A DNA stretch of 38,973 nucleotides from Candidatus Woesearchaeota archaeon (GTDB lineage: Archaea; Nanobdellota; Nanobdellia; Woesearchaeales; WJKL01), in assembly GCA_018221125.1 (NCBI GenBank), contig JAAOYC010000032.1, positions 1 through 38,973 of the forward strand, read 5' to 3'. A model generated the notes under the pieces. That model had not been told where the DNA came from, did not search any database, and saw nothing but the letters and a program-made list of their open reading frames with translations. Positions within the stretch are counted from its first letter, which is position 1; the number at the start of each line of letters is the position of its first letter. This document shows, piece by piece, positions 3,540-33,695 of this stretch. The translations under genes and the position numbers were made by a program.

Positions 3540-4916
3540 ATGATAGACTTAGGAGCTTTAACTGAAGATTTAAAGAGAAGAAATAAAGATATTTCTAAAG
3601 AAAAAGATAAAGAAATTAATAGATTAGTAAAAAAAAGAAAGAAAGAAGTAGAAAAAGTTGAAGCAAATTATGATAACCAAATTAGTTGGTTACAATCTGA
3701 TGCTCGACATCAAATAGGTAGTTCTAGAGATGAATATATGAGAAGAGTTTCTGGAGAAATAATAAAAGATCTTGAGCAAAGTTATGATGTTTTACAAGGA
3801 AGAAGTGGTTTAGCTGGTTTAACAGATGATGAGAAAATAAAAGCAGCAAAATTTAAAACTTTTTTAAGTGCAATGGAGATTGAAGATGAAAGTAAAGTTG
3901 ACGCAGCACTTAATGTTTTTGGTTTAAATCCTGATTTAAAAGAAGCAATGACTGGTGGTTCTTTGGATCATAGAGATATTGTTTCTTATATGGGTGCATC
4001 TAATAATTCATTTTACATGGTTGTGCCTGTTGTTAAAGGAAGTGATGATATACTTGCTCAAAGTTTAGAAGATAAAGTAAGTGGTATTTTAGAACATGGA
4101 CAAGTTACACCAGGTCATAGTGTGGATTTTGGTGGAAAAGGCCGTGTTGCAAGTGTTGCTGTGAGTAAGATTAAATTTAAATATGAATGTAGGCCTACAA
4201 ATGGATTTTTAGTATATCATGTTGAAATACCTGATAATAGTGATTCTAGTTTAATGATAAGTTTACAAAAATCATTAGTATCTAAATTAAGAGAATTACA
4301 ACCAGAAGAATTTGAAAAAATGAGATTAATTCATACAACAATGCCTATTGATGGTGATGTTATGGAATATTTCTTAAATCATTCAAGAAATGATATGTAT
4401 TCTTCTTCTGATATGGTAGAAGAATTAAAAGAAGCAGGAACTGAATATGTCTCTGTTGATAAAGTTGCAGAAATATTAAGCAGAGCACCACATGTTGTTA
4501 AAGGGTTGGCTACAAAAGGAAAACTTTCAAAAAATGATAATGGAGAAATTAGTGTTGAATCATTAGGATTATATTTAGGTGAAAATAAAAATGCTCCAGC
4601 AAAAAGAGCACCTTATGTTAGGGGCACATCAACAGGTGTATTAAATTTTAGTTCTCTTGATTTTGAAGAAAGAAAACAAGAAGCGTATTTAAGATTAGAG
4701 AAATATGGAGATGAACTTTCTAGCAGAGAAGCTAAAGATGTTCTTGGAGTTAAAAATATAACAAATAATTTAACAAGCAAACTTGCTAATAAAATAGGAG
4801 AAAAAAGATTTAAAGGAAGAAGACCATTTTATTTTGTTCCTAGAGATAAATTAAAAGCTTATATGGAAGCACGTACTCCAACAAATAGGGGTTGGAGACC
4901 TAAAAGTAATCTTTAG
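3540..4916 (+). CDS. hypothetical protein with N-terminal coiled coil and C-terminal HTH-like regions (458 aa)
   Basis: N-term KEKDKEINRLVKKRKKEVEKVEANYDNQI (charged coiled coil); C-term DKVAEILSRAPHVVKGLATKGKL and SSREAKDVLGVKNITNNLTSKL look HTH-like; caggtttataag promoter at ~3509. Confidence 0.75.
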   Translation: MIDLGALTEDLKRRNKDISKEKDKEINRLVKKRKKEVEKVEANYDNQISWLQSDARHQIGSSRDEYMRRVSGEIIKDLEQSYDVLQGRSGLAGLTDDEKIKAAKFKTFLSAMEIEDESKVDAALNVFGLNPDLKEAMTGGSLDHRDIVSYMGASNNSFYMVVPVVKGSDDILAQSLEDKVSGILEHGQVTPGHSVDFGGKGRVASVAVSKIKFKYECRPTNGFLVYHVEIPDNSDSSLMISLQKSLVSKLRELQPEEFEKMRLIHTTMPIDGDVMEYFLNHSRNDMYSSSDMVEELKEAGTEYVSVDKVAEILSRAPHVVKGLATKGKLSKNDNGEISVESLGLYLGENKNAPAKRAPYVRGTSTGVLNFSSLDFEERKQEAYLRLEKYGDELSSREAKDVLGVKNITNNLTSKLANKIGEKRFKGRRPFYFVPRDKLKAYMEARTPTNRGWRPKSNL

Positions 4917-4970: not shown

Positions 4971-5417
4971 TTAATCTTCTCCTTTAAATTTTCTAAATGA
5001 ATTCTGATATAAAAATAAACCATAACTTTTGCAAACTTCAGTTCCATACTCTTCAATATGAGCCTTATCTACATGTTCTAACTTAGAAATATTTAATTTA
5101 ATATTTTTTGCAGTATCATCATTATAGACAAAATCACTAAGAATATCCCAATCACCAAAATAAATTGACTTTAATTCAGGAGCGTTATCTTCAAGAAATT
5201 CTTCAAGCCCCTTTTTAATGCCTTTTTTTGTTTCAGATCTTAGAATCTGATATTGAGAATCATGTATATTATCACCAAAATAAAATTTTATATTGTCAAT
5301 AGGATAAAATTCATCTAAGAATCTGTCTTGTTCTTTATCCTCAAACTCTAATACCGCCTCTATAGACATATTACTACATAATCTTTCATTTTTTATAAAG
5401 CTTTCAGTAATACTCAT
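4971..5417 (-). CDS. hypothetical acidic protein (148 aa)
   Basis: Complete ORF, no recognised domain. Confidence 0.65.
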   Translation of the reverse strand: MSITESFIKNERLCSNMSIEAVLEFEDKEQDRFLDEFYPIDNIKFYFGDNIHDSQYQILRSETKKGIKKGLEEFLEDNAPELKSIYFGDWDILSDFVYNDDTAKNIKLNISKLEHVDKAHIEEYGTEVCKSYGLFLYQNSFRKFKGED

Positions 5418-5539
5418 TTTCTAATACCTTAAAGAACCCCCTCCAAATAACTATAGATTCGATAGTAAACTAAGTATTTAAACCTAATGGATTTTATATA
5501 TTTAGAAAATATTATAAACTATTTAATTAATTCTATGTT

Positions 5540-6040
5540 ATGAAGGTTTCAGATGTAGCAAAACCAATGCAGGCAATTCTGGTCAGTTCTAGAGCAGAGA
5601 TCAAGACAAAGTTCTCTCCTGAGCCAGAAGTCAAAGATAATATCTTTACTCTTTGCTGGCATATGCCTGTTTCTTTTGACCCTCCTTTGTTTGCAATATC
5701 TGCTGGAAAGGCGAGATATTCTTCTAAATTAATAAAAGAATCAAAGGTATTTGTTGTTAATTTCATGGATCTAAAGCATGAGAAAGAAGTTGTTTTCTGC
5801 GGAACAAACAGCGGAGAGCATATTGATAAGTTTAAGGAGACAGGGCTGGAGAAAGAGGAAGCAGAGAAAATAGACTGTGTTAGGATAAAACAAGCATCTG
5901 GTTTTCTGGAATGCAAAGTTGTTAATGAAGTTGATGCAGGAGACCATATTGTGTTTATAGGAGAAGTTCTGAACATGGATCTAAAGAAAACAAAGAACAG
6001 GATGTTCTCTGAAGATGACAGATTTACTACAACTAAATAA
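5540..6040 (+). CDS. flavin reductase family protein (DIM6/NTAB-type)
   Basis: MPVSFDPPLFAISAGKARYSSKLIKESKVFVVNFMD and GDHIVFIGEVL are typical of the family. Confidence 0.85.
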   Translation: MKVSDVAKPMQAILVSSRAEIKTKFSPEPEVKDNIFTLCWHMPVSFDPPLFAISAGKARYSSKLIKESKVFVVNFMDLKHEKEVVFCGTNSGEHIDKFKETGLEKEEAEKIDCVRIKQASGFLECKVVNEVDAGDHIVFIGEVLNMDLKKTKNRMFSEDDRFTTTK

Positions 6041-6073
6041 AATTTATATATTAGAAAATATTTTGAAAATAAA

Positions 6074-6406
6074 ATGAAAGAATATCAGGAAAAATGCAGG
6101 CTTTCAGCAAAAAAGTTTGATACTGAAAAAGAGGAAATTTTTACATGGGGATTAGGCATAGCAGGAGAAGCAGGGGATGTTGCAAGTTGCATCAAGAAAA
6201 CATTTGCCCATGACAATGACCAAAAAAAAGGCATTAGAGAGAATATAGGGGATACTTTATGGTATGCTGCAATGATCTGCAACTTTTTTGGATGGGATAT
6301 GCAGGAAGTTTTAAATGAAAATGTTGCAAAACTTGAGAAGAGATATCCTAAAGGCTTTAAAATAGAAAAAGCAAAACGGGAAATGATTGACTGGGGTAAT
6401 AAATAA
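6074..6406 (+). CDS. MazG-like nucleotide pyrophosphohydrolase
   Basis: GLGIAGEAGDVASCIKKTF ... RENIGDTLWYAAMICNFFGWDMQEVLNENVAKLEKRYP contains EAGDV/ENIGD metal-binding motifs. Confidence 0.85.
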   Translation: MKEYQEKCRLSAKKFDTEKEEIFTWGLGIAGEAGDVASCIKKTFAHDNDQKKGIRENIGDTLWYAAMICNFFGWDMQEVLNENVAKLEKRYPKGFKIEKAKREMIDWGNK

Positions 6407-6407
6407 A

Positions 6408-6908
6408 ATGAGTGTTGAAGATGTACAAAAAGTAAACCAATTGGCCCAAGAGCTGATAGAAAAAGGATTTGCAGCTGACAGAGAGGAAGCTGTAAAGAAA
6501 GCACAGGAAATGCTTAACAAGGAAATAACCAGTGCTGCCCAGGTAAAAGAGACAGATGAAAAGCAGAATATTGCTGCATCTGAAGTAAGTGATGATTCTT
6601 TAAAAAATATGATTGAAAGAGTAAAAGACCATGTTGCAAGGCAGTTTGAAGGATATAAGAATGCTCTTCTTGGCCTTGAGAAAGAGCTTCGTGCTTTAAA
6701 GCAGCAGGTTGAAGAGCTTAAATCAAGAGGTGTTTCCAGAACTGCAGCAGACAGAGGAATTGCTGAAAAGAAAGTTGAAGAAGCTGCTGAGCCTGATGAA
6801 GAGCCTATGAAAGTTGAGAAAGAAGAAGGAGAAGCTCATCCTAAAGTAGGAAGAAATAATCCAGATGATGTTTCTATAGAAAAGATGTTTTATTGTGGGA
6901 ATAAATAA
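6408..6908 (+). CDS. hypothetical coiled-coil protein (166 aa)
   Basis: ATG at 6408, directly after the MazG stop; central heptad-like region DHVARQFEGYKNALLGLEKELRALKQQVEELKSRG. Confidence 0.7.
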   Translation: MSVEDVQKVNQLAQELIEKGFAADREEAVKKAQEMLNKEITSAAQVKETDEKQNIAASEVSDDSLKNMIERVKDHVARQFEGYKNALLGLEKELRALKQQVEELKSRGVSRTAADRGIAEKKVEEAAEPDEEPMKVEKEEGEAHPKVGRNNPDDVSIEKMFYCGNK

Positions 6909-17443: not shown

Positions 17444-18424
17444 TTGGATATTTCTATGGCATATAGTTTTGAAGAATTGAAACCACTGGAAACCCGAGAA
17501 ATTATTCACATCTCTCAGATGGGAGACAATAGAGATGAGAATGGTAATTTTTCTCTATTGAGAGGAAAGAAAAACACTTTTTTCTTTGAAAAAATGGGAG
17601 GATATGGAACAATTTACCGTCCATTTGAACCAGAAGTAGAAGAATCTCTTGATGATTTAGTTTCTTTTGTAAAAGAGGACTGCGCATCTGTAAATTTAAG
17701 ACATTTCCCCCCTTCTGTATTGGATAAGTATTTTTTTACAGTGATACCTCACGGAGGGACAAATAAACATTGGAGACTTTATCAAACACCTTTAACAGTT
17801 GAAGATTATGATGCTAAGCTTAAAAAATTCAGGAAGACTGGTTATGAGTATAGAGAATTAACTCCAGAAGATACACCTAAACTTATAGATTTGATCAAGG
17901 AATGGGCCAGAGGTAAAAAAGAAAGCGCAATGCGTGTATCGCTTGATTCTAATCTTGGAAGTGTACGAGATATTGATGAAAATATTGAAAAATTGCAAAA
18001 TATTCGCAGCGAAGTTGCATGGTTAGATTTTTTAGCAAGGGAACCCAAAGAATATGAAAAATTAATGGCTCAGCCATTAACTACTCTTTATGGAACTTTT
18101 AGAGATGGCCAGCTTTTATCATATATCTATACAGAAGGGAATGAATTCTTTATGGCTTTTCATTCCAGGGCTTCAAAAAGAGTGAATAGCAGATCTCCTC
18201 AAGAATTTTTAGATTTAGCAGTTGCAAGAGAATTTGCACAAAGAGGAGTTAAGAAATTTGACAGAGGATTTTTAAATATTAGAAAAGGGATGATCGGGCT
18301 TATTGAATACAAAAAGAAGTTTGGAGAGATAAAAGGAGCTATTGAAATAAATTGGGATGGTGTTTATTTGTGCAATTCTCCTGAATATAGATATTTACAA
18401 GAAAAAATTGATTTTAGTAATTGA
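17444..18424 (+). CDS. GNAT/DUF2156-like protein (326 aa)
   Basis: C-terminal half LYGTFRDGQLLSYIYTEGNEFFMAFHSRASKRVNSRSPQEFLDLAVAREFAQRGVKKFDRGFLNIRKGMIGLIEYKKKFG resembles GNAT/FemAB-like acyltransferases; start may be ATG 17456 (MAYSFEEL). Confidence 0.5.
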   Translation: MDISMAYSFEELKPLETREIIHISQMGDNRDENGNFSLLRGKKNTFFFEKMGGYGTIYRPFEPEVEESLDDLVSFVKEDCASVNLRHFPPSVLDKYFFTVIPHGGTNKHWRLYQTPLTVEDYDAKLKKFRKTGYEYRELTPEDTPKLIDLIKEWARGKKESAMRVSLDSNLGSVRDIDENIEKLQNIRSEVAWLDFLAREPKEYEKLMAQPLTTLYGTFRDGQLLSYIYTEGNEFFMAFHSRASKRVNSRSPQEFLDLAVAREFAQRGVKKFDRGFLNIRKGMIGLIEYKKKFGEIKGAIEINWDGVYLCNSPEYRYLQEKIDFSN

Positions 18425-18468
18425 TTATTTCTCAATAAACTTCTGCATCCTATTTACAAAGTCTTCTG
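18410..18468. repeat. left copy of ~59-bp direct repeat; carries remnant C-terminus EDFVNRMQKFIEK* (minus strand)
   Basis: gattttagtaattgattatttctcaataaacttctgcatcctatttacaaagtcttctg, near-identical to 19455-19511. Confidence 0.85.
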
Positions 18469-18593
18469 TGAGATAAACGCCCGTATAAAACAAGGGATTT
18501 AACAATTAGGGGCTAAGAAGCAAATCAAATATGCACTGGTCACTGGACATGTGCCCGCAAGATATATAAATTAACTTATCTTATTAGTAAGTT

Positions 18594-19439
18594 ATGAGTA
18601 AAGTAGATAATAAATTAGCTGTATTTCAGGGAAAACATATTAGAAAAATTTGGCATAATAATGAATGGTATTTTTCAGTAATTGATATTATAGATGCTTT
18701 AGATGCAAGTACTAGACCCAGAAAATATTGGTCTGATCTAAAAAAAAAACTTACTGAAGAAGGTTTTGAGTTGTCCGCAAAAATCGGACAACTGAAATTA
18801 GTGGCTTCTGATGGCAAATCTTACCTTACGGATTGTGTAAGTACCAAAAACACGTTTAGGATAATTCAATCTATTCCCTCTAAAAAAGCAGAACCTTTCA
18901 AACAATGGCTCGCAGAAGTAGGTTATCAAAGAGTACAAGAGATAGAAAATCCAGAACTTGCTCAGAAGCGAATGAAATCATTATACAAGGCAAAAGGTTA
19001 TTCTGATGAATGGATTGAGAAACGAGTTAGAGGTATTACAATAAGAGATGAATTGACTGATGAATGGGGTAAAAGGGGTGTAAAAACAAACAGGGAATAC
19101 TCTATTTTAACTGCAGAGATTTCTAAAACAACATTTGGTTTAACTCCTGGGGAATATCAAAAATTAAAAGGTCTCAAACACCAGAATTTAAGAGACCATA
19201 TGAATGATTTAGAATTAATATTTAATATGCTTGGAGAAGCTTCTACTACGAAGATTGCCAGGAATAAAGATGCACTTGGATTTGATGAAAACAAGACTGC
19301 TGCAAAAGGAAGAGGAGTGGTGGCAGGAGTAGCGAGAAAAGAATTAGAAAAAAGAAGTGGTGAGAAAGTAGTTAGTTCTGAGAATTATTTAGAAGCACCT
19401 GAAAAAGTAAAGAAGCTGAAGAATAAAAGAAAATCTTGA
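18594..19439 (+). CDS. Bro-N domain protein / phage antirepressor-like (DinD-like C-terminus)
   Basis: FQGKHIRKIWHNNEWYFSVIDIIDALDASTRPRKYWSDLKKKL and ITIRDELTDEWGKRGV...ILTAEISKTTFGLTPGEYQKLKGLKHQNLRDHMNDLELIFNMLGEASTT. Confidence 0.9.
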   Translation: MSKVDNKLAVFQGKHIRKIWHNNEWYFSVIDIIDALDASTRPRKYWSDLKKKLTEEGFELSAKIGQLKLVASDGKSYLTDCVSTKNTFRIIQSIPSKKAEPFKQWLAEVGYQRVQEIENPELAQKRMKSLYKAKGYSDEWIEKRVRGITIRDELTDEWGKRGVKTNREYSILTAEISKTTFGLTPGEYQKLKGLKHQNLRDHMNDLELIFNMLGEASTTKIARNKDALGFDENKTAAKGRGVVAGVARKELEKRSGEKVVSSENYLEAPEKVKKLKNKRKS

Positions 19440-19454
19440 AGCAAAATTAATATA

Positions 19455-19511
19455 GATTTTAGTTGATTTATTTCTCTATAAACTTCTGCATCCTGTTTAC
19501 AAAGTCTTCTG
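19455..19511. repeat. right copy of the direct repeat, within the 3' end of the nucleotidyltransferase gene
   Basis: gattttagttgatttatttctctataaacttctgcatcctgtttacaaagtcttctg. Confidence 0.85.
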
Positions 19512-20274
19512 CTTCTTTGTAGAGTTTTTCATATTCAGGGCCTTTTATCTCTTTTATTTCCCTGTGCGTGATGCCTTTCATAAGCTTATAGAATCTGTCC
19601 ATTGTTTTTGCATATTTTGCTTCCAGCTTGTGCTCTTTGACAAGTCTTTTCTCCAGCAAGTCTCCTGCGTATTGAGGAGAAGGCGGTGTTTCGCCAATAT
19701 GCATCAATGCTGCATGGGTTGCATCAATAACAGCCCAGTATAAATCTAAAGTTGCCTGGAGTATATGCCATTTTGAGTTTAATAATGTTCTTGGAGCCCG
19801 TCCAAAATAAACCCAGACAGACTCTTTTGTTGGCTTTATCCTTCCCTGGATAAGTAATGCCTGCATTGGGTCAAAGAATCCTGTATCCAGCAATGCAATT
19901 CCATCTCTTAGGATGTTTATTGCAACAGGGTCTCCTGCCCTTAGATATTCCCAGAAAGATGTTATTGTCATTGATGTTACATGCAGACGAGTTGATACTT
20001 TTCCCAGTGTTTTTTCAACTATCAACCTATACACTTCTATTACTTCTCTTGTCATCCTTATTGACAAGTCATCCACTACAATAAGAACATCAATGTCTCC
20101 TTTCTGGCCAACAGGTGTCTTTTTTCTTGCTGCTGAGCCGAACAGAACAACTGCTTTTAAGAAATCTCCGAATTCGTTTTTTAATCTTTTTGCAAAAGAC
20201 TTTGCAGCTGCAATGTCTTCATTCGGATATTTAACTATGTTAGGATGAGCGCCTTTTTTTAGTGTGAATTTCAA
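19468..20274 (-). CDS. nucleotidyltransferase (MNT-like) with C-terminal helical, possibly HEPN-like, domain (268 aa)
   Basis: VVLFGSAARKKTPVGQKGDIDVLIVVDD (GS-x-DxD motif); C-terminal helices TLDLYWAVIDATHAALMHIGETPPSP... Confidence 0.8.
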   Translation of the reverse strand: MKFTLKKGAHPNIVKYPNEDIAAAKSFAKRLKNEFGDFLKAVVLFGSAARKKTPVGQKGDIDVLIVVDDLSIRMTREVIEVYRLIVEKTLGKVSTRLHVTSMTITSFWEYLRAGDPVAINILRDGIALLDTGFFDPMQALLIQGRIKPTKESVWVYFGRAPRTLLNSKWHILQATLDLYWAVIDATHAALMHIGETPPSPQYAGDLLEKRLVKEHKLEAKYAKTMDRFYKLMKGITHREIKEIKGPEYEKLYKEAEDFVNRMQKFIEK

Positions 20275-21536: not shown

Positions 21537-22184
21537 ATGGCTAAGGAAGATCTAGAGAAAGTATTGAAGAAGAAAGTTGAGCCTTTGCTAGAAGAATCAA
21601 TGCACAAGATTTTAGGTGTAACTATTTCTGAGTTTGGGAAAGATATCACTGACAGTATTGAGAAAAATCCTTTGATTGCCTATGATATTGATATTAGATT
21701 GGGTTTTAAGGCAGCAAAAAAACTGTTCAAGAAGCAGTTCTTGACAAGGATGCTGCAGACTAATTTTGGAAACATCTCTGCTGTTGCAAAAGTAACTGAA
21801 TTAGACAGGAGAAGCGTGCATAGAGCTGTAAAGGAATTGGGAATAGGAATAAAAGGGATTAGAAGAGATATGATTAAAGCTGATTATTATCGTCGAGAAG
21901 CTGTTGGAGAGATATTGAAAGGGACTTTGGACAGTTATAAGACAGTGATCAGGCCTGGAAAGCTAGAGAATATGTATGAGAATGTTGACAAGATAAGCTT
22001 TGATATTGTGAAAGAACTACCTGCAATAGAGATGAGCTGGGATGCTGCTGAGAAGATGTTTGAAATCCAGTATTTTGAGAAAGCACTTAAGGAGAATAAA
22101 GGCAATGTTTCCAGAACAGCGCGTAGAATAGGTTTAAGATATGAAACTTTGCATAGGAAGCTGAAGAAGTTAGGGTTGAAGTAG
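21537..22184 (+). CDS. protein with two Fis-type (HTH_8) helix-turn-helix domains
   Basis: KKQFLTRMLQTNFGNISAVAKVTELDRRSVHRAVKELGI and EIQYFEKALKENKGNVSRTARRIGLRYETLHRKLKKLGLK. Confidence 0.85.
   Translation: MAKEDLEKVLKKKVEPLLEESMHKILGVTISEFGKDITDSIEKNPLIAYDIDIRLGFKAAKKLFKKQFLTRMLQTNFGNISAVAKVTELDRRSVHRAVKELGIGIKGIRRDMIKADYYRREAVGEILKGTLDSYKTVIRPGKLENMYENVDKISFDIVKELPAIEMSWDAAEKMFEIQYFEKALKENKGNVSRTARRIGLRYETLHRKLKKLGLK
22140..22184 (+). repeat. left copy of 45-bp direct repeat (3' end of Fis-type gene)
   Basis: tatgaaactttgcataggaagctgaagaagttagggttgaagtag; 41/45 identical to 30768-30812. Confidence 0.88.
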
Positions 22185-22185
22185 A

Positions 22186-22776
22186 TTAAGATGAATATTT
22201 TTGAATGAATTCTTCTACTTTGCTGTTGAAAAGATTTTCAGTTTCTTGTTCTTGTTGTTCTTGGATCTTCTTATAATGCTTTACAATAGGAATATGAAGT
22301 ACAGCAGGTATAATCCCTCCCACAATAGCTCCTAAAACTGAACCAGCTGGGGCAGCAACATAAGCAATATTCTGGCTTTCTGTTAAGTAGTCAGCTAAAG
22401 TTCCTGCACCGATTGCTCCTCCAATATAACCAGCTACTGCAAATGTTATGCATGATGCTATAGCACTATATCCTGGAAGAGTGGGTGTGTCTTCTATATT
22501 TTCTTTAAGCATATCCCTTAAGTTTGGCAATTCTGATAATTCTTTTCCCCAGTTAGGAATTGAAAGGGTTTTTTCACTAAGTGAAGCATTCCTTATTGAA
22601 TGATAATGAACTATTTGACAAAACTCTTCATAATAATCTTTACCAAGTCCTTTAAGTTCATTTGCAACATGAGATTTAAGATTTTCTAAATCTGATTCTT
22701 CTAAACCCCATGAATCGGAATTTAATCTAAGAGAATCCCAAGCCTCCATTGCTGGTGTAATTATTTCCATTAACAT
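22186..22776 (-). CDS. hypothetical membrane protein, glycine-zipper 2TM (196 aa); cluster gene J
   Basis: YSAIASCITFAVAGYIGGAIGAGTL...YVAAPAGSVLGAIVGGIIPAVLHI; SD ggagaataaaaaatg. Confidence 0.75.
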   Translation of the reverse strand: MLMEIITPAMEAWDSLRLNSDSWGLEESDLENLKSHVANELKGLGKDYYEEFCQIVHYHSIRNASLSEKTLSIPNWGKELSELPNLRDMLKENIEDTPTLPGYSAIASCITFAVAGYIGGAIGAGTLADYLTESQNIAYVAAPAGSVLGAIVGGIIPAVLHIPIVKHYKKIQEQQEQETENLFNSKVEEFIQKYSS

Positions 22777-22779
22777 TTT

Positions 22780-23064
22780 TTATTCTCCTTCAGTCATATC
22801 TGCCAATAATATTGCAAGTCCTCCAACAACTTCATCTCTTTCTCTGAGTCTCTGTTCATATCCAAAACGGTTTTTAGGGTTAGGATTATTGAATTTAAAT
22901 GTAACATTTTGAAAATAGTTTCCACAATCCTCTGCTTTTACTTCTACGTAATTTCCATAAGATTCTAGCCGTCTACCACTGTGTAGTCTGTTTGGATGTT
23001 GTGTAAGATAGAATCTTACCTGATCCATCTGTTCCCAATTCAATCCATCTACTTTTATTTTCAT
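22780..23064 (-). CDS. hypothetical protein (94 aa); cluster gene I
   Basis: Likely ATG at 23064 (MKIKVDGLNWEQ) after gtgataaataaaaag; track start 23079 is upstream. Confidence 0.7.
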   Translation of the reverse strand: MKIKVDGLNWEQMDQVRFYLTQHPNRLHSGRRLESYGNYVEVKAEDCGNYFQNVTFKFNNPNPKNRFGYEQRLRERDEVVGGLAILLADMTEGE

Positions 23065-23068
23065 CTTT

Positions 23069-23557
23069 TTATTTATCACTGCCTAAAATATCTTCAACCC
23101 CTTTTGATAAAGGTCTTTCAACAATACTTCTTTCTATCTCTTTTGCTTCCTCAGAAGTTATTGGTTCTGTCCAAAAATGTTCGCCTATACTGGCTTTCAT
23201 TTGCTTTACTACTTCATCAGCATATAATTTCCTTATTGCTCCACAAGGTTGATCTCTGCCCTCTTTGTATAATGCAACATATTCTTCTGTTATTTTTTCT
23301 TCGCCTCTTAATAATTTCAGCACTGCTGCAATCTTTTTAGGATTACGTTCACTTATCTTATCCATCAGTTCGCCTCTTTCTGACAGTTTTTTGCCTACTA
23401 ATAAATCTGCAATAGGTGGATTATGATAATATAGTGAAACAGGTTTTCCATCTTCATAGTGTACTATCACTGCAGTTGTCTCTTCTGGGATTAAACCAGT
23501 TTTGTCTGTGCCATCTATTGCATACGTTTCCTTAACTAATCTAGATTCTATTGTCAT
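23069..23557 (-). CDS. hypothetical protein (162 aa); cluster gene H
   Basis: Likely ATG at 23557 (MTIESRLVKETYAIDG) preceded by gaggttaaaa; longer track start would overlap gene G. Confidence 0.7.
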   Translation of the reverse strand: MTIESRLVKETYAIDGTDKTGLIPEETTAVIVHYEDGKPVSLYYHNPPIADLLVGKKLSERGELMDKISERNPKKIAAVLKLLRGEEKITEEYVALYKEGRDQPCGAIRKLYADEVVKQMKASIGEHFWTEPITSEEAKEIERSIVERPLSKGVEDILGSDK

Positions 23558-23565
23558 TTTTAACC

Positions 23566-24444
23566 TCATGGGTCTAACATAAACAATCTTTTTCTCCATT
23601 TAGGGTTTAGTAAAACATCTCCGTAATTTTCTACAAGTCTAACTGAATCTTCAAATAGATTATCTGCTTGGATAAGCAAAGATGGCGCATCATAAGATAA
23701 GCAAGGCCCATCAAATTCTTGCAGCATTTCAACTAATTCAGATTTAGCTTTGTCTATTCCTGGATTATCTGGTGCATTGATTTTTCCCAGACATACTGTA
23801 CCTACGCAAGATTGCGTTATAGGAGATTCTCCATTTATTACATGGAAACCTGAGTAAATATCAGGCAATGTGCTTTTTAGTTCATGTAATTTCTCATGCA
23901 TTTTTGCAAGTGTTTCTTTTCTGTCAATAACTAGAGCTTCACATTCTTCTACTCTGCTAAAATTCTCTTCTGGATTTTCCAAGACTCTTTTAAGAGTTCT
24001 ATAAAGACGTAATGGTGAAGGGCTATCCTCCAAATCTTCAATATTTGCTGCATCAATGATATAACCCACTCTTAAAAGTCTTGCAGCGCTGTTAGTGACT
24101 TCCCTATTACAAGCATCACCAAGACCAAAACGTCTTGCAATTCTTTCAGCAAGTTCCCTTTCCTCATCAGTAGCTCCTGGATAATTTTCAAGCAAATCTA
24201 AATAAGCGCTTAAAGGCTCTGTGTATTCTTTTTTTGATTTGCCTTCTCCATCTATAAGAACTTTCATATCACCGGGCTTTACTTTTAATTCTCCTGCATG
24301 TTCTTTGACTATTCTGTCTACTTTTCTGCCGATATCAACTACATCCTGGGATTTACAGCTAAAATATACACTGTCTACCCAAAACTGATCATTTGCATCT
24401 ATGCAATATACATTTGGTTTTACTACATCAAATTTTATTTCCAT
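23566..24444 (-). CDS. hypothetical protein (292 aa); cluster gene G
   Basis: Complete ORF preceded by ataaaggtgaataaaaatgg. Confidence 0.75.
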   Translation of the reverse strand: MEIKFDVVKPNVYCIDANDQFWVDSVYFSCKSQDVVDIGRKVDRIVKEHAGELKVKPGDMKVLIDGEGKSKKEYTEPLSAYLDLLENYPGATDEERELAERIARRFGLGDACNREVTNSAARLLRVGYIIDAANIEDLEDSPSPLRLYRTLKRVLENPEENFSRVEECEALVIDRKETLAKMHEKLHELKSTLPDIYSGFHVINGESPITQSCVGTVCLGKINAPDNPGIDKAKSELVEMLQEFDGPCLSYDAPSLLIQADNLFEDSVRLVENYGDVLLNPKWRKRLFMLDP

Positions 24445-24446
24445 TT

Positions 24447-24947
24447 TTATTCACCTTTATCAAGAAGAGCTCCATAATTAATCAACCAGGGATGCTCTTG
24501 TACAAATTCATTGAATAATTCCTTGAATCTTTCTCCTAATTCCTCGAATTGCTGGTAATATAATTCAGTGTGTCTTTTAATTGCAGGCGTGGTATGTTCT
24601 GGATTCTGGACTTTAATGCAGTTCACACCCATTTCTCTTGCTGATTCTATAATATACTGCTCAAAATCTACAAAAGACTTGTCTTCCTGAGATGGATATT
24701 CATATTCTTCGACTGCCATTGTTACATATTGACTTACGTGTGAGGCTACTGACACCTCTTTGCTGCCAATGTTTACTTTATTTCCCGCACCAATGATAAC
24801 TCCAATAAGTGCCTTAGCCTCATAGCCTACTCCCTTTTCAGGATCAAATCCATAAACAATAACACTTGGTCTTAATCCACCTTCGAATTCTACCTTATAT
24901 TCTAAACTAATTTCTTCTTTTCTTGGTTCTTGTGTTTCTTCTGTCAT
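24447..24947 (-). CDS. hypothetical protein (166 aa); cluster gene F
   Basis: Complete ORF ending ...LLDKGE; preceded by aaaaggtgaataaaaaatg. Confidence 0.75.
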   Translation of the reverse strand: MTEETQEPRKEEISLEYKVEFEGGLRPSVIVYGFDPEKGVGYEAKALIGVIIGAGNKVNIGSKEVSVASHVSQYVTMAVEEYEYPSQEDKSFVDFEQYIIESAREMGVNCIKVQNPEHTTPAIKRHTELYYQQFEELGERFKELFNEFVQEHPWLINYGALLDKGE

Positions 24948-24950
24948 TTT

Positions 24951-25373
24951 TTATTCACCTTTTGAGTCAGGTGCTTTAAGTTCAGCTTTTGCGTCAAGTA
25001 CTTGAAGTTCACCTGCATATTGTCTTACTCTATAATAACCATCTTTGAAATCGCAAAAGAATTCTTTTACCATATCTACATAATCATATCCTATAGTAAC
25101 TCCTAAACCAAATCCCACTCCTAGAGTCAATAAAGTTGCTAAATCACTGCTTTCAAATGCATAGTGGGTAAAAGTTGCGACACCACTTAAAACAGCAACA
25201 GGCAAAGCAACTCCGCCAACTGCTTTTAGAAAGCTCTTGTTTCTCTCGCTTTTAGCTTCACCTAAACAATCTTCTATTCCTTCTCTCTTCTTAAGATTAT
25301 CCAAAGCTTGATCTAACTTTTCTGTATCAATTTTTTCATTGAGGTTTGAATAGTCTCCTTCTGGACATTTCAT
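24951..25373 (-). CDS. hypothetical 2TM membrane protein (140 aa); cluster gene E
   Basis: AVGGVALPVAVLSGVATFTHYAFESSDLATLLTLGVGFGLGVTIGYD; start overlaps the gene D stop. Confidence 0.75.
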   Translation of the reverse strand: MKCPEGDYSNLNEKIDTEKLDQALDNLKKREGIEDCLGEAKSERNKSFLKAVGGVALPVAVLSGVATFTHYAFESSDLATLLTLGVGFGLGVTIGYDYVDMVKEFFCDFKDGYYRVRQYAGELQVLDAKAELKAPDSKGE

Positions 25374-25843
25374 TCTTCATCACCTACTTTTGTTCTAGAA
25401 ACATAAAACTGCGCTGTTGCGTGCATAGAATATTCAACCTTTTTTGATTTTTCCCAAAGGTTGTTGAAAATATAATCATCTATAACATCTGGTTTTATAT
25501 TACCCATTATATCACTATCTTCTGTGCGTGCATCAAGATCTACTGGAGGTCTGACTTCTTGTTCAACAAAATTAACACTAAAATAAGGAACTCCTAATTC
25601 TTCTGCCATACGCATTGAAGAACGAAATATTTCTCCTGAGCCATATTCCTCCCTGATTCTTTTAGAGGGCATAGATACAATATAATTTCTTGGACCTAGA
25701 TAAGCAGAGCTGACCATTGTCAATTCATCTGGTTCAATCTTGTCATCAAGTGTTTTTGCAAAGTAGAAACGATCTAATTCAGCTAGTCTGAATACTCCGT
25801 CTTTCAAAACAATTAATTGTGGTTTTGGTTTTTCTTCTGTCAT
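25370..25843 (-). CDS. hypothetical protein (157 aa); cluster gene D
   Basis: Complete ORF preceded by caggtgaataaaaaatg. Confidence 0.75.
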   Translation of the reverse strand: MTEEKPKPQLIVLKDGVFRLAELDRFYFAKTLDDKIEPDELTMVSSAYLGPRNYIVSMPSKRIREEYGSGEIFRSSMRMAEELGVPYFSVNFVEQEVRPPVDLDARTEDSDIMGNIKPDVIDDYIFNNLWEKSKKVEYSMHATAQFYVSRTKVGDEE

Positions 25844-25850
25844 TTTTTAT

Positions 25851-26477
25851 TCACCTGTATCCTAATCCTACTATTGGAAGTGCATATTGCACTATAACAT
25901 TTCCTTGTTCATCCAGAACCTGGAAACCTAGAATTGAAACTGATTTACCTAAAAATTCTTTCAGAGAAATTAAATTTAATTTTTCTTCTGGAAAGCGTGG
26001 TTCTAAAGATGATTCTAGTTGGTTAAGTTTTTCAAGTGGTGGATCCTTTATGAGTTCAAAATTATCGTATGGTTCATTTTCAGGGAGTAGATCTTTTTTT
26101 TCTATTTTTTCAAGCAGTGGAATTCTTTTTTCTATTTTATCTCTGTCAAAAAACTCTTCAAGAGAAGATAAATTTTCTTCTCGATAATTAGGTTGGTCTT
26201 TTATGACTAATTCAGGAAAGTGTTTAAGTCTTATATCATCATATAAATCAAGTGAATAAACAACTACTCTTGCTCCTAAACCAATTCTTAATGGAATATC
26301 CATTCTAAAAGGCTCTTCATGCCCTTCCAGTCTGAACTCCAGGCTTCCCTGATGTTTAACAGCATAGCTATCCATACCTAAGAATTTTTTAGCTTCTATC
26401 TGCTCATGAGATGACTCCTGTACAACTCTTCCTTCTGTATGAGGAATTTCCTTACCATCTAAATATAGTCTTTCCAT
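25851..26477 (-). CDS. hypothetical protein (208 aa); cluster gene C
   Basis: Complete ORF preceded by aaaggtgaataaaaaatgg. Confidence 0.75.
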   Translation of the reverse strand: MERLYLDGKEIPHTEGRVVQESSHEQIEAKKFLGMDSYAVKHQGSLEFRLEGHEEPFRMDIPLRIGLGARVVVYSLDLYDDIRLKHFPELVIKDQPNYREENLSSLEEFFDRDKIEKRIPLLEKIEKKDLLPENEPYDNFELIKDPPLEKLNQLESSLEPRFPEEKLNLISLKEFLGKSVSILGFQVLDEQGNVIVQYALPIVGLGYR

Positions 26478-26480
26478 TTT

Positions 26481-26861
26481 TTATTCACCTTTATCAATAC
26501 CAATTCCATATATTTGAATAGAATCTCCATATGCTGTAACTTCTCTTCCTTTTAGAACAGACAAATCTTCTCCTAAAGTTCCTGTATCGCAAAGAAATGA
26601 AGCAATCCTCTCTAAGCCTGCGATTGGAAGACTTGCATGGGTACCAGATTCAGATATTTCTACATATAATCCAGATTGTTCAGAATCAATCTTTTGCCTG
26701 TCACATTTAATTCTTTCAACAACTCTGCCTGGGCCAATTTGGAAAAAATAAGCATCAGCAATTGTTGCTTCTTGTGATTTAGCATTAGCTAAATCTGCTT
26801 CAGTAATATCTCTATTTGATGGTGTGTATACCCTTTGATTGTTGAATTCGAATGTTTTCAT
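26481..26861 (-). CDS. hypothetical protein (126 aa); cluster gene B
   Basis: Complete ORF ending GIDKGE; preceded by ggggataaaaaatg. Confidence 0.75.
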   Translation of the reverse strand: MKTFEFNNQRVYTPSNRDITEADLANAKSQEATIADAYFFQIGPGRVVERIKCDRQKIDSEQSGLYVEISESGTHASLPIAGLERIASFLCDTGTLGEDLSVLKGREVTAYGDSIQIYGIGIDKGE

Positions 26862-26864
26862 TTT

Positions 26865-27236
26865 TTATCCCCATCGCTCTGATTTTTCACTGCTGATATC
26901 TGTCCTACCAGGATTCATTTTAGAATATCCAAAAGTAATTAGTATATCCTCTCTAGCTTTTCTTAACTGTTCTCTGTCTTCTCCTAATAGAACTAATGCA
27001 GTCAATACATCACCATCCTGAGCACCATGAACATACTGGGTTCCATCAAAATGATCTTTTCTAAATACAGCATCTCTAAATTCAACTTGGCAGCCATATT
27101 GTTCAGCTACAAAACTAAATGTTGGCCTTATTCCACTTCCTTTGAGATATCTATTATCTAATACTGCGTCTGTTGAAACGTGTCCATAAACTACTATTTC
27201 CTGTAATGTTTTTTCTTGAGTTTCATTTGTTTCCAT
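26865..27236 (-). CDS. hypothetical protein (123 aa); cluster gene A, first gene of the cluster
   Basis: Complete ORF preceded by aaaaggtgataaaaaatgg. Confidence 0.75.
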   Translation of the reverse strand: METNETQEKTLQEIVVYGHVSTDAVLDNRYLKGSGIRPTFSFVAEQYGCQVEFRDAVFRKDHFDGTQYVHGAQDGDVLTALVLLGEDREQLRKAREDILITFGYSKMNPGRTDISSEKSERWG

Positions 27237-27386
27237 TTTTTATCACCTTTTGTTGTTATTTAATCACTTCTCAGTAAGTATATAGATTTCAAGCATATGT
27301 ATAAACCTTGTTATTATAGAATATAGATTAGTATATATGTATATACAAGCGAAAGGTTTAAATAGTTCTAGGATTTATCTATACAT

Positions 27387-28286
27387 ATGAAGAGAAAAAT
27401 CGTAAAACAAGGGGCAGCAACTATGACTATTAGCCTGCCTGCTCCATGGATTAAGAAATTCAGCTTAAAAGAAGGAGATGAGCTTAATATAGAGGAAGTT
27501 GGAAGCAGTATCAATATAACAACTGAGAAGGCTATGGGCAAGAGAAGGATAGAGCTGGATGCAAAAGAGCTTGGTTTTTTCACTAAAAATGAGCTAGGGC
27601 ATCTGTATTTTCTTGGTTTTGATGAAGTGATTATTCATTTTAAGAATAAAGAAGTGCTAAACCAGATAAAAAGCAGGCTGCCTGACTGCATTGGATATGA
27701 GATTATAGACCAGACTGAGGATAAGATAGTGATAAAAAGCATATCAAGCGAGTTAGAAACAGAATTTGACAATATCTTAAGAAAGGTATTTCTGATGCTA
27801 AAAGAGATGGGAGACAGTGTCTATGATGCATTAAAAAACAATGAATTTTCAAGATTAAAACAAATAAGAGATATGGAATCAATAAACAACAAATTTACTG
27901 CTTTTTTAACAAGATTGTTGTCTAAAAAAGGATATAAAAGGCCAGAAAGAAGCCTGCAGGCGTATGACATGATGCAAAACTTAGAAAGAACTGCTGATGT
28001 GTACAAGTATATATGTGATGATTTTATAAATAGGAAGAAAGCAGTTGATAAAGATGTTTTAGAATTATTAAACAAGATAAATGATTATTATAAACTGTTA
28101 TATGAAATCTTCTACAAGTTTGATCCTGAGAAAAAGACAGCATTATATGGAGACAGGCATGCATTGAAAGAGCAGGCTGATAAATTCCTGAAATCAGGCA
28201 AAGAAGTTGTTCTAAGCCATCATTTGATTGAGCTGTTAGAAAGGATATATAACACAGCTGGTTCTTATTTAGCTATGAGTATTTAA
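27387..28286 (+). CDS. PhoU family protein with N-terminal AbrB/SpoVT domain
   Basis: KRKIVKQGAATMTISLPAPWIKKFSLKEGDELNIEE then PhoU-like helical repeats; promoter-like aaaggtttaaatag. Confidence 0.85.
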   Translation: MKRKIVKQGAATMTISLPAPWIKKFSLKEGDELNIEEVGSSINITTEKAMGKRRIELDAKELGFFTKNELGHLYFLGFDEVIIHFKNKEVLNQIKSRLPDCIGYEIIDQTEDKIVIKSISSELETEFDNILRKVFLMLKEMGDSVYDALKNNEFSRLKQIRDMESINNKFTAFLTRLLSKKGYKRPERSLQAYDMMQNLERTADVYKYICDDFINRKKAVDKDVLELLNKINDYYKLLYEIFYKFDPEKKTALYGDRHALKEQADKFLKSGKEVVLSHHLIELLERIYNTAGSYLAMSI

Positions 28287-29860
28287 GCTGCTGGAACTAC
28301 AACAAGAGGTTCTTTATATTGCTTGTATGCTTTGTAGTTTTCTGCTGTTTGTTTTAGTATTTCAACAGGAGATTCTGCTGCAAAGTCTACTAAAGAAGTT
28401 CTAAGATTTGAAAGCATTCCTGCTTCAGCTGGATTTTGTGTTAAAGCACCGTCTATCATGCTGATTGCTTTTTCAAAATATAATTTGCATTTTTGCATCT
28501 GTTCATCTTTTACTTTTGGATGTTCTTTTGCAAATATGATTGCTCCTCCGCATTTGTCAATCTGGTCATTGATCAAGGAGTATCTTAATGCTGTAGATAA
28601 CCAAGTATTAGGAAGCAATAATGGAGTTTTATGTTCTGCTGAGTGTTCATTATGTTTGTCAACATACATGTGCAGCATATCTCTTGAAAATTCAGCTGGG
28701 TCCATGTCAGACCTGTCTCTTATTACAGAGTTTGTGAATCTTGCCAAGTCATCAAATTTCCTTCCTATTTTTGCTGCTTCATAATCTACAATAAAGCATT
28801 CTTCTTCTGACATTCTGCAGTTTCCTATGTGGAAATCTCCGTGTGTGAAATGTCTTGGGTCAAATGTTTTAGTAAAAGCAGAGTAAGCCTGCATTAAATC
28901 GTGAGCTTGAGGACTTACGATTACAGAATTACCTGATACAGGCGTTACAAATCTGCTTCTAAATTGAGTATTATAGTCAGTTAGTTCTAATGACAAGCCA
29001 TAATGTTCTCTTAATTCTGGCAAGTTCAATGAAGCCAGAACATGGATCTGTGATATCTTGTCTAAAGCTTTTCCGCATGCATCTAGAACTTCTGAGTCAG
29101 AACCTTGTTTTACAACATTTCTTAATTCCTGTTCACCAACATGATTAATAAGCAATCTTGTGTTTCTGTCATAGATTGTGTGTGTCTTGATTCCTAAATC
29201 ATTCAAGAATTGAGGAAGAATTTCTTCTTTTTCATCTGCATCTTTTGCAACAATATGTAATTGTTTTAATGCTCCATTTTCTTCATATTCAAATGTTAAG
29301 ATATCAACATTATGCTGGGACTGGTCTGCTAAGCTTACTATTCCTGAATATCTTATTCCAGGATGCTCTTGTGCAAGCATTGCTAATACTGGCTTGTATT
29401 CATCTGGCAAAGAACTTTCTGCAGTTTCTAATGAAACTGCTGCTTTTGTTTTAGGTGCTTCTGATTCTTTTTTAACAGAATAACCGGCTTTAGTATAATT
29501 ACCTAAAAGTTTTTCTAATGATTCAATGTTTTCTTTGTTATTAAATATGTATTCCTTCATTTCTTCTTTGTCATAGGATGTGTACTTCTCTTTAAATTTA
29601 GAATATTGTTCTATTTGAGGGATATAATACTGATTGAATTCTTCTGGATTTTCCTCTAATTGGTTATAAACAATAGAATCTAGATCTTTTATTTTATGAT
29701 TTAGACTATTATGGTTTATATTCTCTTTTTTGATTTTCTTAGAGTTTTCATTGAGAAAAGAACTGTAATAGATCTCAATATTTTTTAGAATACTAGGTTC
29801 ATAATTATTTTCCTTCTTGCTAAAACCATCTATAATTATTTCTTCTAGTGATTTATCCAT
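28283..29860 (-). CDS. aminoglycoside-phosphotransferase-like kinase (525 aa)
   Basis: HFTHGDFHIGNCRMSEEECFIVDYEAAKIGRKFDDLARF (HGDxHxxN and D motifs); upstream gaaaggtttataaagg. Confidence 0.8.
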   Translation of the reverse strand: MDKSLEEIIIDGFSKKENNYEPSILKNIEIYYSSFLNENSKKIKKENINHNSLNHKIKDLDSIVYNQLEENPEEFNQYYIPQIEQYSKFKEKYTSYDKEEMKEYIFNNKENIESLEKLLGNYTKAGYSVKKESEAPKTKAAVSLETAESSLPDEYKPVLAMLAQEHPGIRYSGIVSLADQSQHNVDILTFEYEENGALKQLHIVAKDADEKEEILPQFLNDLGIKTHTIYDRNTRLLINHVGEQELRNVVKQGSDSEVLDACGKALDKISQIHVLASLNLPELREHYGLSLELTDYNTQFRSRFVTPVSGNSVIVSPQAHDLMQAYSAFTKTFDPRHFTHGDFHIGNCRMSEEECFIVDYEAAKIGRKFDDLARFTNSVIRDRSDMDPAEFSRDMLHMYVDKHNEHSAEHKTPLLLPNTWLSTALRYSLINDQIDKCGGAIIFAKEHPKVKDEQMQKCKLYFEKAISMIDGALTQNPAEAGMLSNLRTSLVDFAAESPVEILKQTAENYKAYKQYKEPLVVVPAA

Positions 29861-29935
29861 AAGTCCTCATGAATTTAGAGGTATTACTCCTTTATAAACC
29901 TTTCGGTTTTTCACTACTAAAGGGTGGTTACGTTA

Positions 29936-30739
29936 TTACTGCAGTGATCCTTCTAATATTTTTTCTAGTTTTCTAAAATTCCACCAGTTTCTTATATGTC
30001 CTTTAACATCTATTAAAGAATTAATAATTTCAATGTCAATATATGCCTGCATATCTAATTTTACATGAACTGTTCCTGTTCTGTAATAAGCTGAGGAGTC
30101 TCTTTTTAATAATTCTTCAACATCAATATCAAGTGTCATAGAAGGGTCAATCTTTTTTCCGTTTTTTATTGTTAAAGCAGTTGTTTCCCATGGAATCCAT
30201 TTACCGTTTGAATAAAGTTCAACCCATGCATGGCAAACCCATCCTTTTATATGTTTACTATAACTAAGACCTTCTGCAAGTCTAACAAGATTTCTCATCT
30301 TAGGGCATTCTGTTTTTGTAGATAATACAACAAACATTGAATAAGTCAGTGCTGCATATTCATCACAATCTCCTTCTCCTTTTTTAAAACTTCTTTCTAA
30401 ATCAAGCCCGTCTGTCATTTCATAATCCTGGATTGTTTCTGCAATCATATTAGCATATTTAAGCCATCCAATTGTTTTTTCTTCTAAAGAAGGGTTTTCA
30501 TTTTCATAAGGAAAATCATATTTTGAGAAATGAAAAAAAGATTCAGTTTTTTTATTGATTGTTATTGTAGGTTGTGATTGTTCTGCTTTTTTTTGGAGAT
30601 AAAAGTAATCAATGGGTATGCTTGAAGCAACATTTGCAATATAAAAAAGTCCTAAAAAACCTATTATGGATCTTACATATTTTCTAAATCTATTTTTTTT
30701 CTTAAGTTTCTGTTCTAAGTCATCCATGCTTAAACACAT
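29936..30739 (-). CDS. membrane-anchored transglutaminase-like protein
   Basis: N-term TM; KGEGDCDEYAALTYSMF ... VCHAWVELYSNGKWIPWETT (Cys/His/Asp-Glu pattern). Confidence 0.82.
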   Translation of the reverse strand: MCLSMDDLEQKLKKKNRFRKYVRSIIGFLGLFYIANVASSIPIDYFYLQKKAEQSQPTITINKKTESFFHFSKYDFPYENENPSLEEKTIGWLKYANMIAETIQDYEMTDGLDLERSFKKGEGDCDEYAALTYSMFVVLSTKTECPKMRNLVRLAEGLSYSKHIKGWVCHAWVELYSNGKWIPWETTALTIKNGKKIDPSMTLDIDVEELLKRDSSAYYRTGTVHVKLDMQAYIDIEIINSLIDVKGHIRNWWNFRKLEKILEGSLQ

Positions 30740-30767
30740 ATTAAATGATTTATAAAGATTGGCGTAT

Positions 30768-30812
30768 TATGAAACATTGCATAGAAAGCTGAAGAAATTA
30801 GGGTTGAAATAG
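30768..30812 (+). pseudogene. remnant 3' end of a Fis-type HTH gene (YETLHRKLKKLGLK*); right copy of 45-bp direct repeat
   Basis: tatgaaacattgcatagaaagctgaagaaattagggttgaaatag; four synonymous differences from 22140-22184; no upstream ORF. Confidence 0.85.
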
Positions 30813-31571
30813 TTACCTTACTCCAGCAACATTTCTTGAAGATTTTCTGCTTTCAGAAATAATATGAATTTCTCCACTTGAGTCTATTTGAAGAGAGACT
30901 TTTCTTATATATTTGGAGGGGTCTCTTAATACATTATTATCTTTAACAAAGATGGTTGCCAATGTAGGATACATTACTGGTCCGTTTGGGATTTTTAAAA
31001 CAGTAGTTTCGTATGGAATCCATTTTCCCTTTAATTTGATTTCAAGATAAGCATGTTCACCCCCTGAAACGCCTTCAGTAAATTTAGCATAATCCCTTAA
31101 TTCAGTAAGTTTTAGTCTTTCAGTTATTGCAAAGAACTGTGTGTATGTCATTTCAGCATATGTTTCGCAATCTCCTTTGGCTCTTTTTAATGCTTTATCT
31201 GGGTCATAGCCTCTTGTTACTTCATAATCTATTCTTGAGTCTACGATTATATTAGCAAGTTTTAGACATTCAATTGTTTTTCTTTCTAATTCAGAATATT
31301 TTCCAGTTGCTTCAGGAGTGCTAAACCCATTTTCAGCATAATATGATAAATCAATACCTGAAAAACCTATTTTTTCCTGCAGTTCTTTTGACTGGACCCG
31401 CTCTGCTCTTCTATTAAGGCGTGCTGCTTGTCTTCTGCTTGGAATTACATTGTATTTTTGGTTTACATTGTGTAAATAACAGCCGCTGGAAATAATCGCA
31501 GCTGCTGAAAGAATCCATGGAGTTGCAGCATGGTCCCAAATATATTTGACAGTTTCTGTGAACTTTCCCAT
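30813..31571 (-). CDS. transglutaminase-like protein, membrane-anchored/lipoprotein-like
   Basis: WILSAAAIISSGCYLHN; KGDCETYAEMTYTQFF ... GGEHAYLEIKLKGKWIPYETTVLKI. Confidence 0.8.
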   Translation of the reverse strand: MGKFTETVKYIWDHAATPWILSAAAIISSGCYLHNVNQKYNVIPSRRQAARLNRRAERVQSKELQEKIGFSGIDLSYYAENGFSTPEATGKYSELERKTIECLKLANIIVDSRIDYEVTRGYDPDKALKRAKGDCETYAEMTYTQFFAITERLKLTELRDYAKFTEGVSGGEHAYLEIKLKGKWIPYETTVLKIPNGPVMYPTLATIFVKDNNVLRDPSKYIRKVSLQIDSSGEIHIISESRKSSRNVAGVR

Positions 31572-33569: not shown

Positions 33570-33695
33570 ATGGTATGGTTTGATGCAAGTTTAAGATTTC
33601 AGATGTGTGAAAGTGGTATAAGTGGTCATGTTGTAACACCACCAATCAAAACTAGCATTAGCTCTATAAGCGGGTTTACACCAGGTGGCCAATAA
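33570..33695 (+). CDS. small ORF (41 aa) translationally coupled to the metallopeptidase
   Basis: gaggaaagaatATG; MVWFDASLRFQMCESGISGHVVTPPIKTSISSISGFTPGGQ*; TAATG overlap with the next gene at 33695. Confidence 0.5.
   Translation: MVWFDASLRFQMCESGISGHVVTPPIKTSISSISGFTPGGQ

What the first reader, a model, noticed from the sequence alone, without database searches (positions are those of the whole stretch)
22140..30812. ~8.6-kb block bounded by a 45-bp direct repeat of a gene 3' end: candidate integrated element
Seen: the last 14 codons plus stop of the Fis-type HTH gene (22140-22184) recur at 30768-30812 in the same orientation, 41/45 identical. All four differences are synonymous third positions (ACT/ACA, AGG/AGA, AAG/AAA twice). 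The second copy has no gene upstream and abuts the stop of the convergent transglutaminase gene (30813). The block between contains the ten-gene orphan operon, AbrB-PhoU, an APH-like kinase and one transglutaminase. Inference: incoming DNA inserted at a gene 3' end and carried its own version of that end, as att sites do. No integrase was recognised inside. The alternative is decay of a second Fis-type paralog.
Basis: partly seen in the sequence, partly recalled or inferred. Interest (0 to 1): 0.75.

Follow-up and report, generated by a model that had tools for sequence, protein, structure and literature searches.

The report
Gene-end duplications flank inserted archaeal genes
In a tiny uncultured archaeon (Woesearchaeota), an 8.6-kb stretch of acquired genes sits between a gene and a leftover second copy of that gene's last 45 bases, and the same arrangement recurs in relatives around single mobile genes, which points to a recurrent way for genes to enter these genomes without a recognisable integrase.

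Summary
The repeat is real: 22140-22184 and 30768-30812, 41/45 identical, all four differences synonymous; no third copy or Fis paralog was found in the draft genome. The 8.6 kb between the copies is acquired: in six relatives the gene at 33695 follows Fis within 0.4-1.9 kb, and a tested operon protein has no clear homologue in 196 genomes. The anatomy recurs. Family relative G003 has the same Fis 3' end duplicated around different cargo (HEPN/MNT-like pair). The window holds a second case: a Bro-N gene between 66-bp copies of a nucleotidyltransferase gene's 3' end. Bro-N genes in this lineage carry such repeats far more often than ordinary genes (18/77 against 4/251). Base-matched codon tests show that in four cases, G003 among them, the two copies diverged while both were functional, so an incoming allele's end was involved. 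For the window's own 45-mer this is only suggestive (P 0.03-0.09). With no integrase in the block and no fixed core or length, I favour repair- or homology-driven insertion at gene ends, akin to 'insertion with long target duplication' of restriction-modification genes, over a classical att element. No reads and no exact empty sister locus were available.

The parts
21537..22184 (+). Fis-type HTH gene (215 aa), intact target gene
   Evidence: Pfam HTH_8 E = 2e-13; conserved beside the nucleotidyltransferase gene in relatives
22140..22184 (+). functional copy of the repeated gene end (last 14 codons plus stop)
22185..30767 (.). inserted block, 8583 bp
   Evidence: absent from the Fis-33695 interval of relatives; cargo not found in relatives
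22186..27236 (-). ten-gene operon without recognisable families; its last stop codon lies 1 nt from the Fis stop
   Evidence: 292-aa member has only a chance-level match in 196 genomes
27387..28286 (+). AbrB-PhoU-like gene in the block
   Evidence: Pfam MazE_antitoxin and PhoU
28283..29860 (-). APH-like gene in the block
   Evidence: Pfam APH E = 1e-4, just below cut-off
29936..30739 (-). transglutaminase-like gene TG1, right end of the block
   Evidence: Pfam Transglut_core
30768..30812 (+). orphan copy of the Fis gene end
30813..31571 (-). transglutaminase-like gene TG2 just outside the block, stop abutting the orphan end; paralog of TG1 (35% aa)
18404..18468 (-). orphan copy of the nucleotidyltransferase gene end (left repeat of the Bro-N insert), overlapping the tail of the plus-strand gene 17444-18424
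18541..18569 (+). conserved promoter box (CACTGGACA ... TATA) of the Bro-N gene
18594..19439 (+). Bro-N gene, sole gene of the second insert
   Evidence: Pfam Bro-N E = 3e-11; multicopy in relatives
19449..19511 (-). functional copy of the second repeat (3' end of the nucleotidyltransferase gene)
19468..20274 (-). nucleotidyltransferase gene, target of the Bro-N insert; no Bro-N insert in G003

Best explanation
The 8.6-kb block is horizontally acquired DNA inserted at the 3' end of the Fis gene. Shown: two versions of the gene end flank genes that are not at this place in relatives, the same anatomy recurs at this gene in G003 with other cargo, and around Bro-N genes at many other genes. Inferred mechanism: a break in the last tens of bases of the resident gene was repaired from incoming DNA that carried a diverged copy of the same gene end followed by cargo; the gene-side end copied the incoming end plus the cargo, and the far side was joined without homology, so the resident gene's last 25-95 bp stayed behind beyond the cargo. 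A circle or fragment carrying one copy of the gene end and recombining into it would leave the same product. The target gene stays intact, so the insertion is tolerated. No integrase is needed or seen. Bro-N genes are frequent passengers of the same process.
For: Non-syntenic, lineage-restricted cargo. Same gene, other cargo in G003. Second case in the window. Bro-N loci with flanking repeats 14/48 and, in a replicate set, 4/29, against 4/251 random ORFs. Copies diverged mostly at synonymous sites: duplicate-then-drift rejected for G003 (P 0.001), L247 (0.009), L074 (0.014), L062 (0.016), while an orphan copy of known shared origin (G056) has decayed with a stop. No integrase or transposase family in the block. 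Body of Fis plus orphan end restores a 215-aa frame ending directly at TG2.
Against: For the window's own pair the codon test is not decisive (P 0.03-0.09), and L072, L089 and L095 fit plain duplication with drift. Orphan lengths are confined to 25-94 bp, which random end-joining does not predict. Only one other Fis locus has an orphan end. No empty site with identical flanks, no reads, no excised form. Other mobile genes show the repeats less often (MNT 3/28, ParE 2/20), so Bro-N may have a role that this model does not include.
Confidence: 0.55

Rival explanations
1. [quoted passage not shown]
For: Confined repeat length, 25-94 bp. The window Bro-N repeat spans the tails of both convergent genes, as a duplicated target would. 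L072, L089, L095 and the window pairs do not reject drift.
Against: Four cases reject it (G003, L247, L074, L062).
Confidence: 0.25
2. Classical integrative element: a tyrosine recombinase acting in trans, or lost, integrated the block at an att site in the gene end.
For: Gene 3' ends are usual att sites (established knowledge); the genome has two tyrosine recombinases on other contigs; a tRNA 3' end on contig C39 carries similar stacked inserts.
Against: No integrase in the block; no common start or core between the window and G003; Bro-N inserts use many unrelated genes and also 5' ends.
Confidence: 0.1
3. Decay of a second Fis gene, or tandem duplication of Fis end plus transglutaminase followed by later insertion of the operon; the orphan end is what is left.
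For: TG1 and TG2, on either side of the orphan end, are paralogs.
Against: No paralog in relatives. TG1 and TG2 are only 35% identical in protein while the supposedly co-duplicated, unconstrained end is 91% identical. Does not account for the same pattern around Bro-N at other genes.
Confidence: 0.05
4. Assembly chimera of two strain variants.
For: Fragmented draft genome (68 contigs), no reads.
Against: Longest exact match inside the 45-mer is 11 nt, shorter than usual assembly words; independent assemblies (G003; G056 and G114 sharing one insertion) show the same kind of structure.
Confidence: 0.05

Closest known systems
Insertion with long target duplication of restriction-modification gene complexes (Nobusato et al. 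2000; Furuta et al. 2010; as cited in PMC3031569)
   Same: Small gene units without transposase, flanked by long, variable direct repeats of the target.
   Different: Cargo here is Bro-N, HEPN/MNT or an orphan operon, not restriction-modification; archaeal; repeats sit at gene ends; in several cases the copies are diverged alleles rather than a duplicated target. The primary papers were not held.
Transposed Arabidopsis genes with genic flanking repeats (PMC2869330)
   Same: Single genes flanked by direct repeats that match the target site and are mostly genic.
   Different: Plant nuclear genome; the authors propose circles made by recombination between repeats.
Integrase-dependent elements at gene 3' ends (integrative elements, genomic islands; general knowledge)
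   Same: Direct repeat of a gene 3' end; the target gene keeps a working end.
   Different: No integrase in the insert, no fixed core, inserts down to one gene, many target genes, also 5' ends.
Homing of free-standing endonuclease genes (general knowledge)
   Same: Single-gene mobility through break repair with copying of flanking sequence.
   Different: No endonuclease recognised in the block or in Bro-N; only the contig C39 case has a LAGLIDADG gene.

Membership tests
Insertion with long target duplication | Long variable direct repeat of target sequence around an insert without transposase | tested here: met
   25-94 bp repeats, 18 of 77 Bro-N loci, plus both Fis cases
Insertion with long target duplication | The two copies derive from one target copy (identical at birth) | tested here: inconclusive
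   Rejected in four of ten cases, allowed in six including the window pairs
Insertion with long target duplication | Single-copy, unoccupied target in a close relative | tested here: inconclusive
   G003 lacks the Bro-N insert but its neighbouring gene differs; relatives lack the block, but no relative has Fis directly beside TG2
Insertion with long target duplication | Restriction-modification cargo | tested here: not met
Integrase-dependent integrative element | Integrase gene in the element | tested here: not met
   No integrase family in the block; genome's two are on other contigs
Integrase-dependent integrative element | Fixed att core at the target gene | tested here: not met
   Orphan end starts 27 nt further upstream in G003 than in the window
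Integrase-dependent integrative element | Excised circular form | not testable with these tools
   no reads available
Homing endonuclease cassette | Endonuclease gene in the insert | tested here: not met
   None in block proteins or Bro-N by Pfam and PHROGs; no confident solved-structure relative of Bro-N
DNA transposon or insertion sequence | Transposase and terminal inverted repeats | tested here: not met
   No transposase family; none of the 25 longest inverted-repeat pairs joins the block's two ends

The most novel reading that the evidence does not exclude
Bro-N genes of Woesearchaeota are a single-gene mobile element of a new kind: expressed from a promoter shared with DNA-repair genes, they move between gene ends by break repair and bring a functional replacement of the target gene's end, and other cargo such as the 8.6-kb block uses the same route.
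Probability: 0.18. Interest if true: 0.85.

Novelty: new variant of a known kind. Interest (0 to 1): 0.6.

Why it matters
DPANN genomes are small yet differ greatly in gene content, and how they gain genes is largely unknown. An insertion mark that can be read from draft genomes (an orphan gene end beyond the cargo) would make such events countable, name the passengers (Bro-N, HEPN/MNT, orphan operons) and let the incoming allele be compared with the displaced one. If Bro-N takes part actively, a widespread family without an assigned role here would gain a testable one.

Tried and rejected
1) A first codon test that ignored base composition gave P = 5e-6 for the pool and 0.024 for the window; I replaced it by a base-matched test, which weakens the window case. 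2) A general Fis 3'-end hot spot: among 38 related loci only G003 has a convincing copy (L182 could not be scored properly because the gene lies at the contig start). 3) A compositional difference of the block: none (33.5% against about 34% G+C). 4) Gene-end repeats as a generic property: rare in about 615 kb of sampled sequence outside the cases described. 5) LAGLIDADG genes as a test of homing: only 2 of 30 have repeats, and one of these (L308) is simply two complete tRNA genes, so homing as the general mechanism is not supported. 6) Scans of viral contigs failed four times; plasmids hold no relative of operon protein o4. 7) The whole genome was not available as a file, so frequency in the own genome rests on sampled stretches.

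Full report
Observation. The window compared with itself gives E = 6e-11 for the pair. In the draft genome (964,591 bp, 68 contigs, 78.6% complete) there is no third copy with up to 3 mismatches and no second Fis-type gene. Named relatives place the lineage in Woesearchaeota.

The block is acquired. In relatives the nucleotidyltransferase gene and the divergent Fis gene are followed by the gene at 33695. The distance from Fis to 33695 is 416-1911 bp in six relatives (2903 bp in a seventh), 3160 bp in G003 and 11,511 bp in the window. A 292-aa protein of the ten-gene operon has only a chance-level match in 196 genomes, and transglutaminase 2 only weak domain-level matches. The genes of the block are therefore not vertically conserved at this place, and no relative has a Fis paralog where the orphan end lies. 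G+C content gives no help.

Recurrence at the same gene. G003, of the same family, has the Fis gene, then a HEPN-like gene and an MNT-type nucleotidyltransferase, then an orphan Fis 3' end of about 71 nt abutting a convergent gene. The HEPN label of the first gene rests on size and position only; Pfam did not confirm it. Of 18 base differences between the functional and orphan ends, 16 are synonymous. No convincing orphan end was found in the other 37 Fis loci.

Recurrence in the window. A 66-bp repeat (88%) at 18404-18468 and 19449-19511 bounds one Bro-N gene. It repeats the 3' end of the nucleotidyltransferase gene and also the tail of the convergent plus-strand gene. In G003 the same nucleotidyltransferase gene has no Bro-N insert, though its neighbour there is a different gene.

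Recurrence around Bro-N genes. Bro-N proteins are patchy (105 of 196 genomes), reach 13 copies per genome, and the closest relatives of the window's copy (76%) lie in another family, while the best copies in same-family genomes are 68% (G001) and 58% (G002). A repeat on both sides (blastn E < 1e-5 within 800 bp) was found in 14 of 48 loci, then in 4 of 29 further loci drawn from the whole phylum, against 4 of 251 random ORFs of 200-400 aa, one of which is the G003 case (Fisher P 2e-9 and 0.005). Repeats are 25-94 bp, median 58.5; the left repeat lies a median 118 nt before the gene, the right one a median 10.5 nt after its stop. Most clear cases are gene 3' ends; L067 and L247 (archease-like sequence) are 5' ends and L079 a promoter. 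G056 and G114, of one genus, share one insertion, so the loci are not all independent. Other mobile-type genes show repeats less often: MNT 3/28 (G003 included), ParE 2/20 with one low-complexity hit. The random-ORF control is lenient; mobility in general, not Bro-N itself, may explain the excess.

Which copy came from where. If the copies arose by duplication and then drifted, the orphan should collect amino-acid changes. The G056 orphan does (10 of 14 changed codons, one stop). Conditioning on the base changed, duplicate-then-drift is rejected for G003 (P 0.001), L247 (0.009), L074 (0.014) and L062 (0.016), but not for the window's Fis end (0.089; 0.031 if only the orphan drifts), the window's Bro-N repeat, L073, L072, L089 or L095. 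So in several cases the two copies diverged as parts of two working genes, and DNA carrying a foreign allele of the gene end entered. For the window this is inferred by analogy.

Mechanism. Shown: insertion at gene ends, two alleles in several cases, intact target gene, no integrase or transposase in the window's inserts, variable start and length. Inferred: break repair or recombination at the gene end using the incoming copy, the other junction made without homology. Joining the Fis gene body to the orphan end restores a 215-aa frame ending directly at the stop of TG2, the expected pre-insertion locus. The narrow range of orphan lengths is not explained by random joining and is the main argument for a staggered-break (target duplication) origin of at least some cases.

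Known systems. The nearest precedent is insertion with long and variable target duplication described for restriction-modification genes (as cited in PMC3031569; the primary paper was not held), and in plants transposed genes flanked by genic repeats (PMC2869330). My searches found no description of this in DPANN archaea; the library is partial, so absence is weak evidence.

Side results. Bro-N genes share a promoter box with genes of DNA replication and repair, and free-standing LAGLIDADG genes lie beside tRNA genes (see noticed in passing). They suggest, but do not show, a link between break repair and these mobile genes.

Limits. One draft genome without reads; sampled rather than complete scans; the repeat threshold was set on the first Bro-N set and applied unchanged to the replicate set.

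Noticed in passing
window 18541-18569; loci L264-L277 (contigs C6, C14, C21, C28, C35, C39, C41, C47, C61 of the genome): A promoter box (CACTGGTCACTGGACA, then a TATA box 6-18 nt later) occurs 14 times in the genome, 0 times in the reversed control. It precedes Bro-N genes, four LAGLIDADG_3 genes, MCM, a DEAD-box helicase (Hef-like), a DEAD_2 (XPD-like) helicase, a Cas4-like nuclease and a D12 adenine methyltransferase: a candidate DNA-repair regulon shared with mobile genes.
   Followed up: partly
loci L283-L312: Of 30 free-standing LAGLIDADG genes in relatives, 22 lie within 200 nt of a tRNA gene, 19 of these tRNAs with a predicted intron; Bro-N, ParE and MNT loci: 1, 0 and 0 of 30. Intron calls are ARAGORN's and unverified.
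   Followed up: partly
L278 (genome contig C39), reverse-complement 5020-6680: A LAGLIDADG gene and an MNT gene are stacked behind a tRNA gene; the tRNA 3' end with the promoter box is repeated after the LAGLIDADG gene (73 bp, 97%), and a 22-nt piece follows the MNT gene.
   Followed up: partly
window 29936-31571: The last gene inside the block (TG1) and the first gene beyond the orphan end (TG2) are transglutaminase paralogs (35% aa); why both flank the orphan end is unexplained.
   Followed up: no
window 22186-27236: Several genes of the ten-gene operon are joined by the same linker, (AAAGGTGA)ATAAAAAATG, so the stop region of one gene supplies the presumed ribosome site of the next.
   Followed up: no
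L043 (G142) 4047-4103 and 5171-5225: A gene of the 33695 family lies between two copies of another gene's 5' end (57 bp, 88%), a 5'-end version of the same anatomy.
   Followed up: no
L116 (genome contig C14) 6998-7036 and 8805-8843: A 39-bp repeat (90%) of the start of a small membrane-protein gene bounds about 1.8 kb of other membrane-protein genes; could be a further case or paralog similarity.
   Followed up: no
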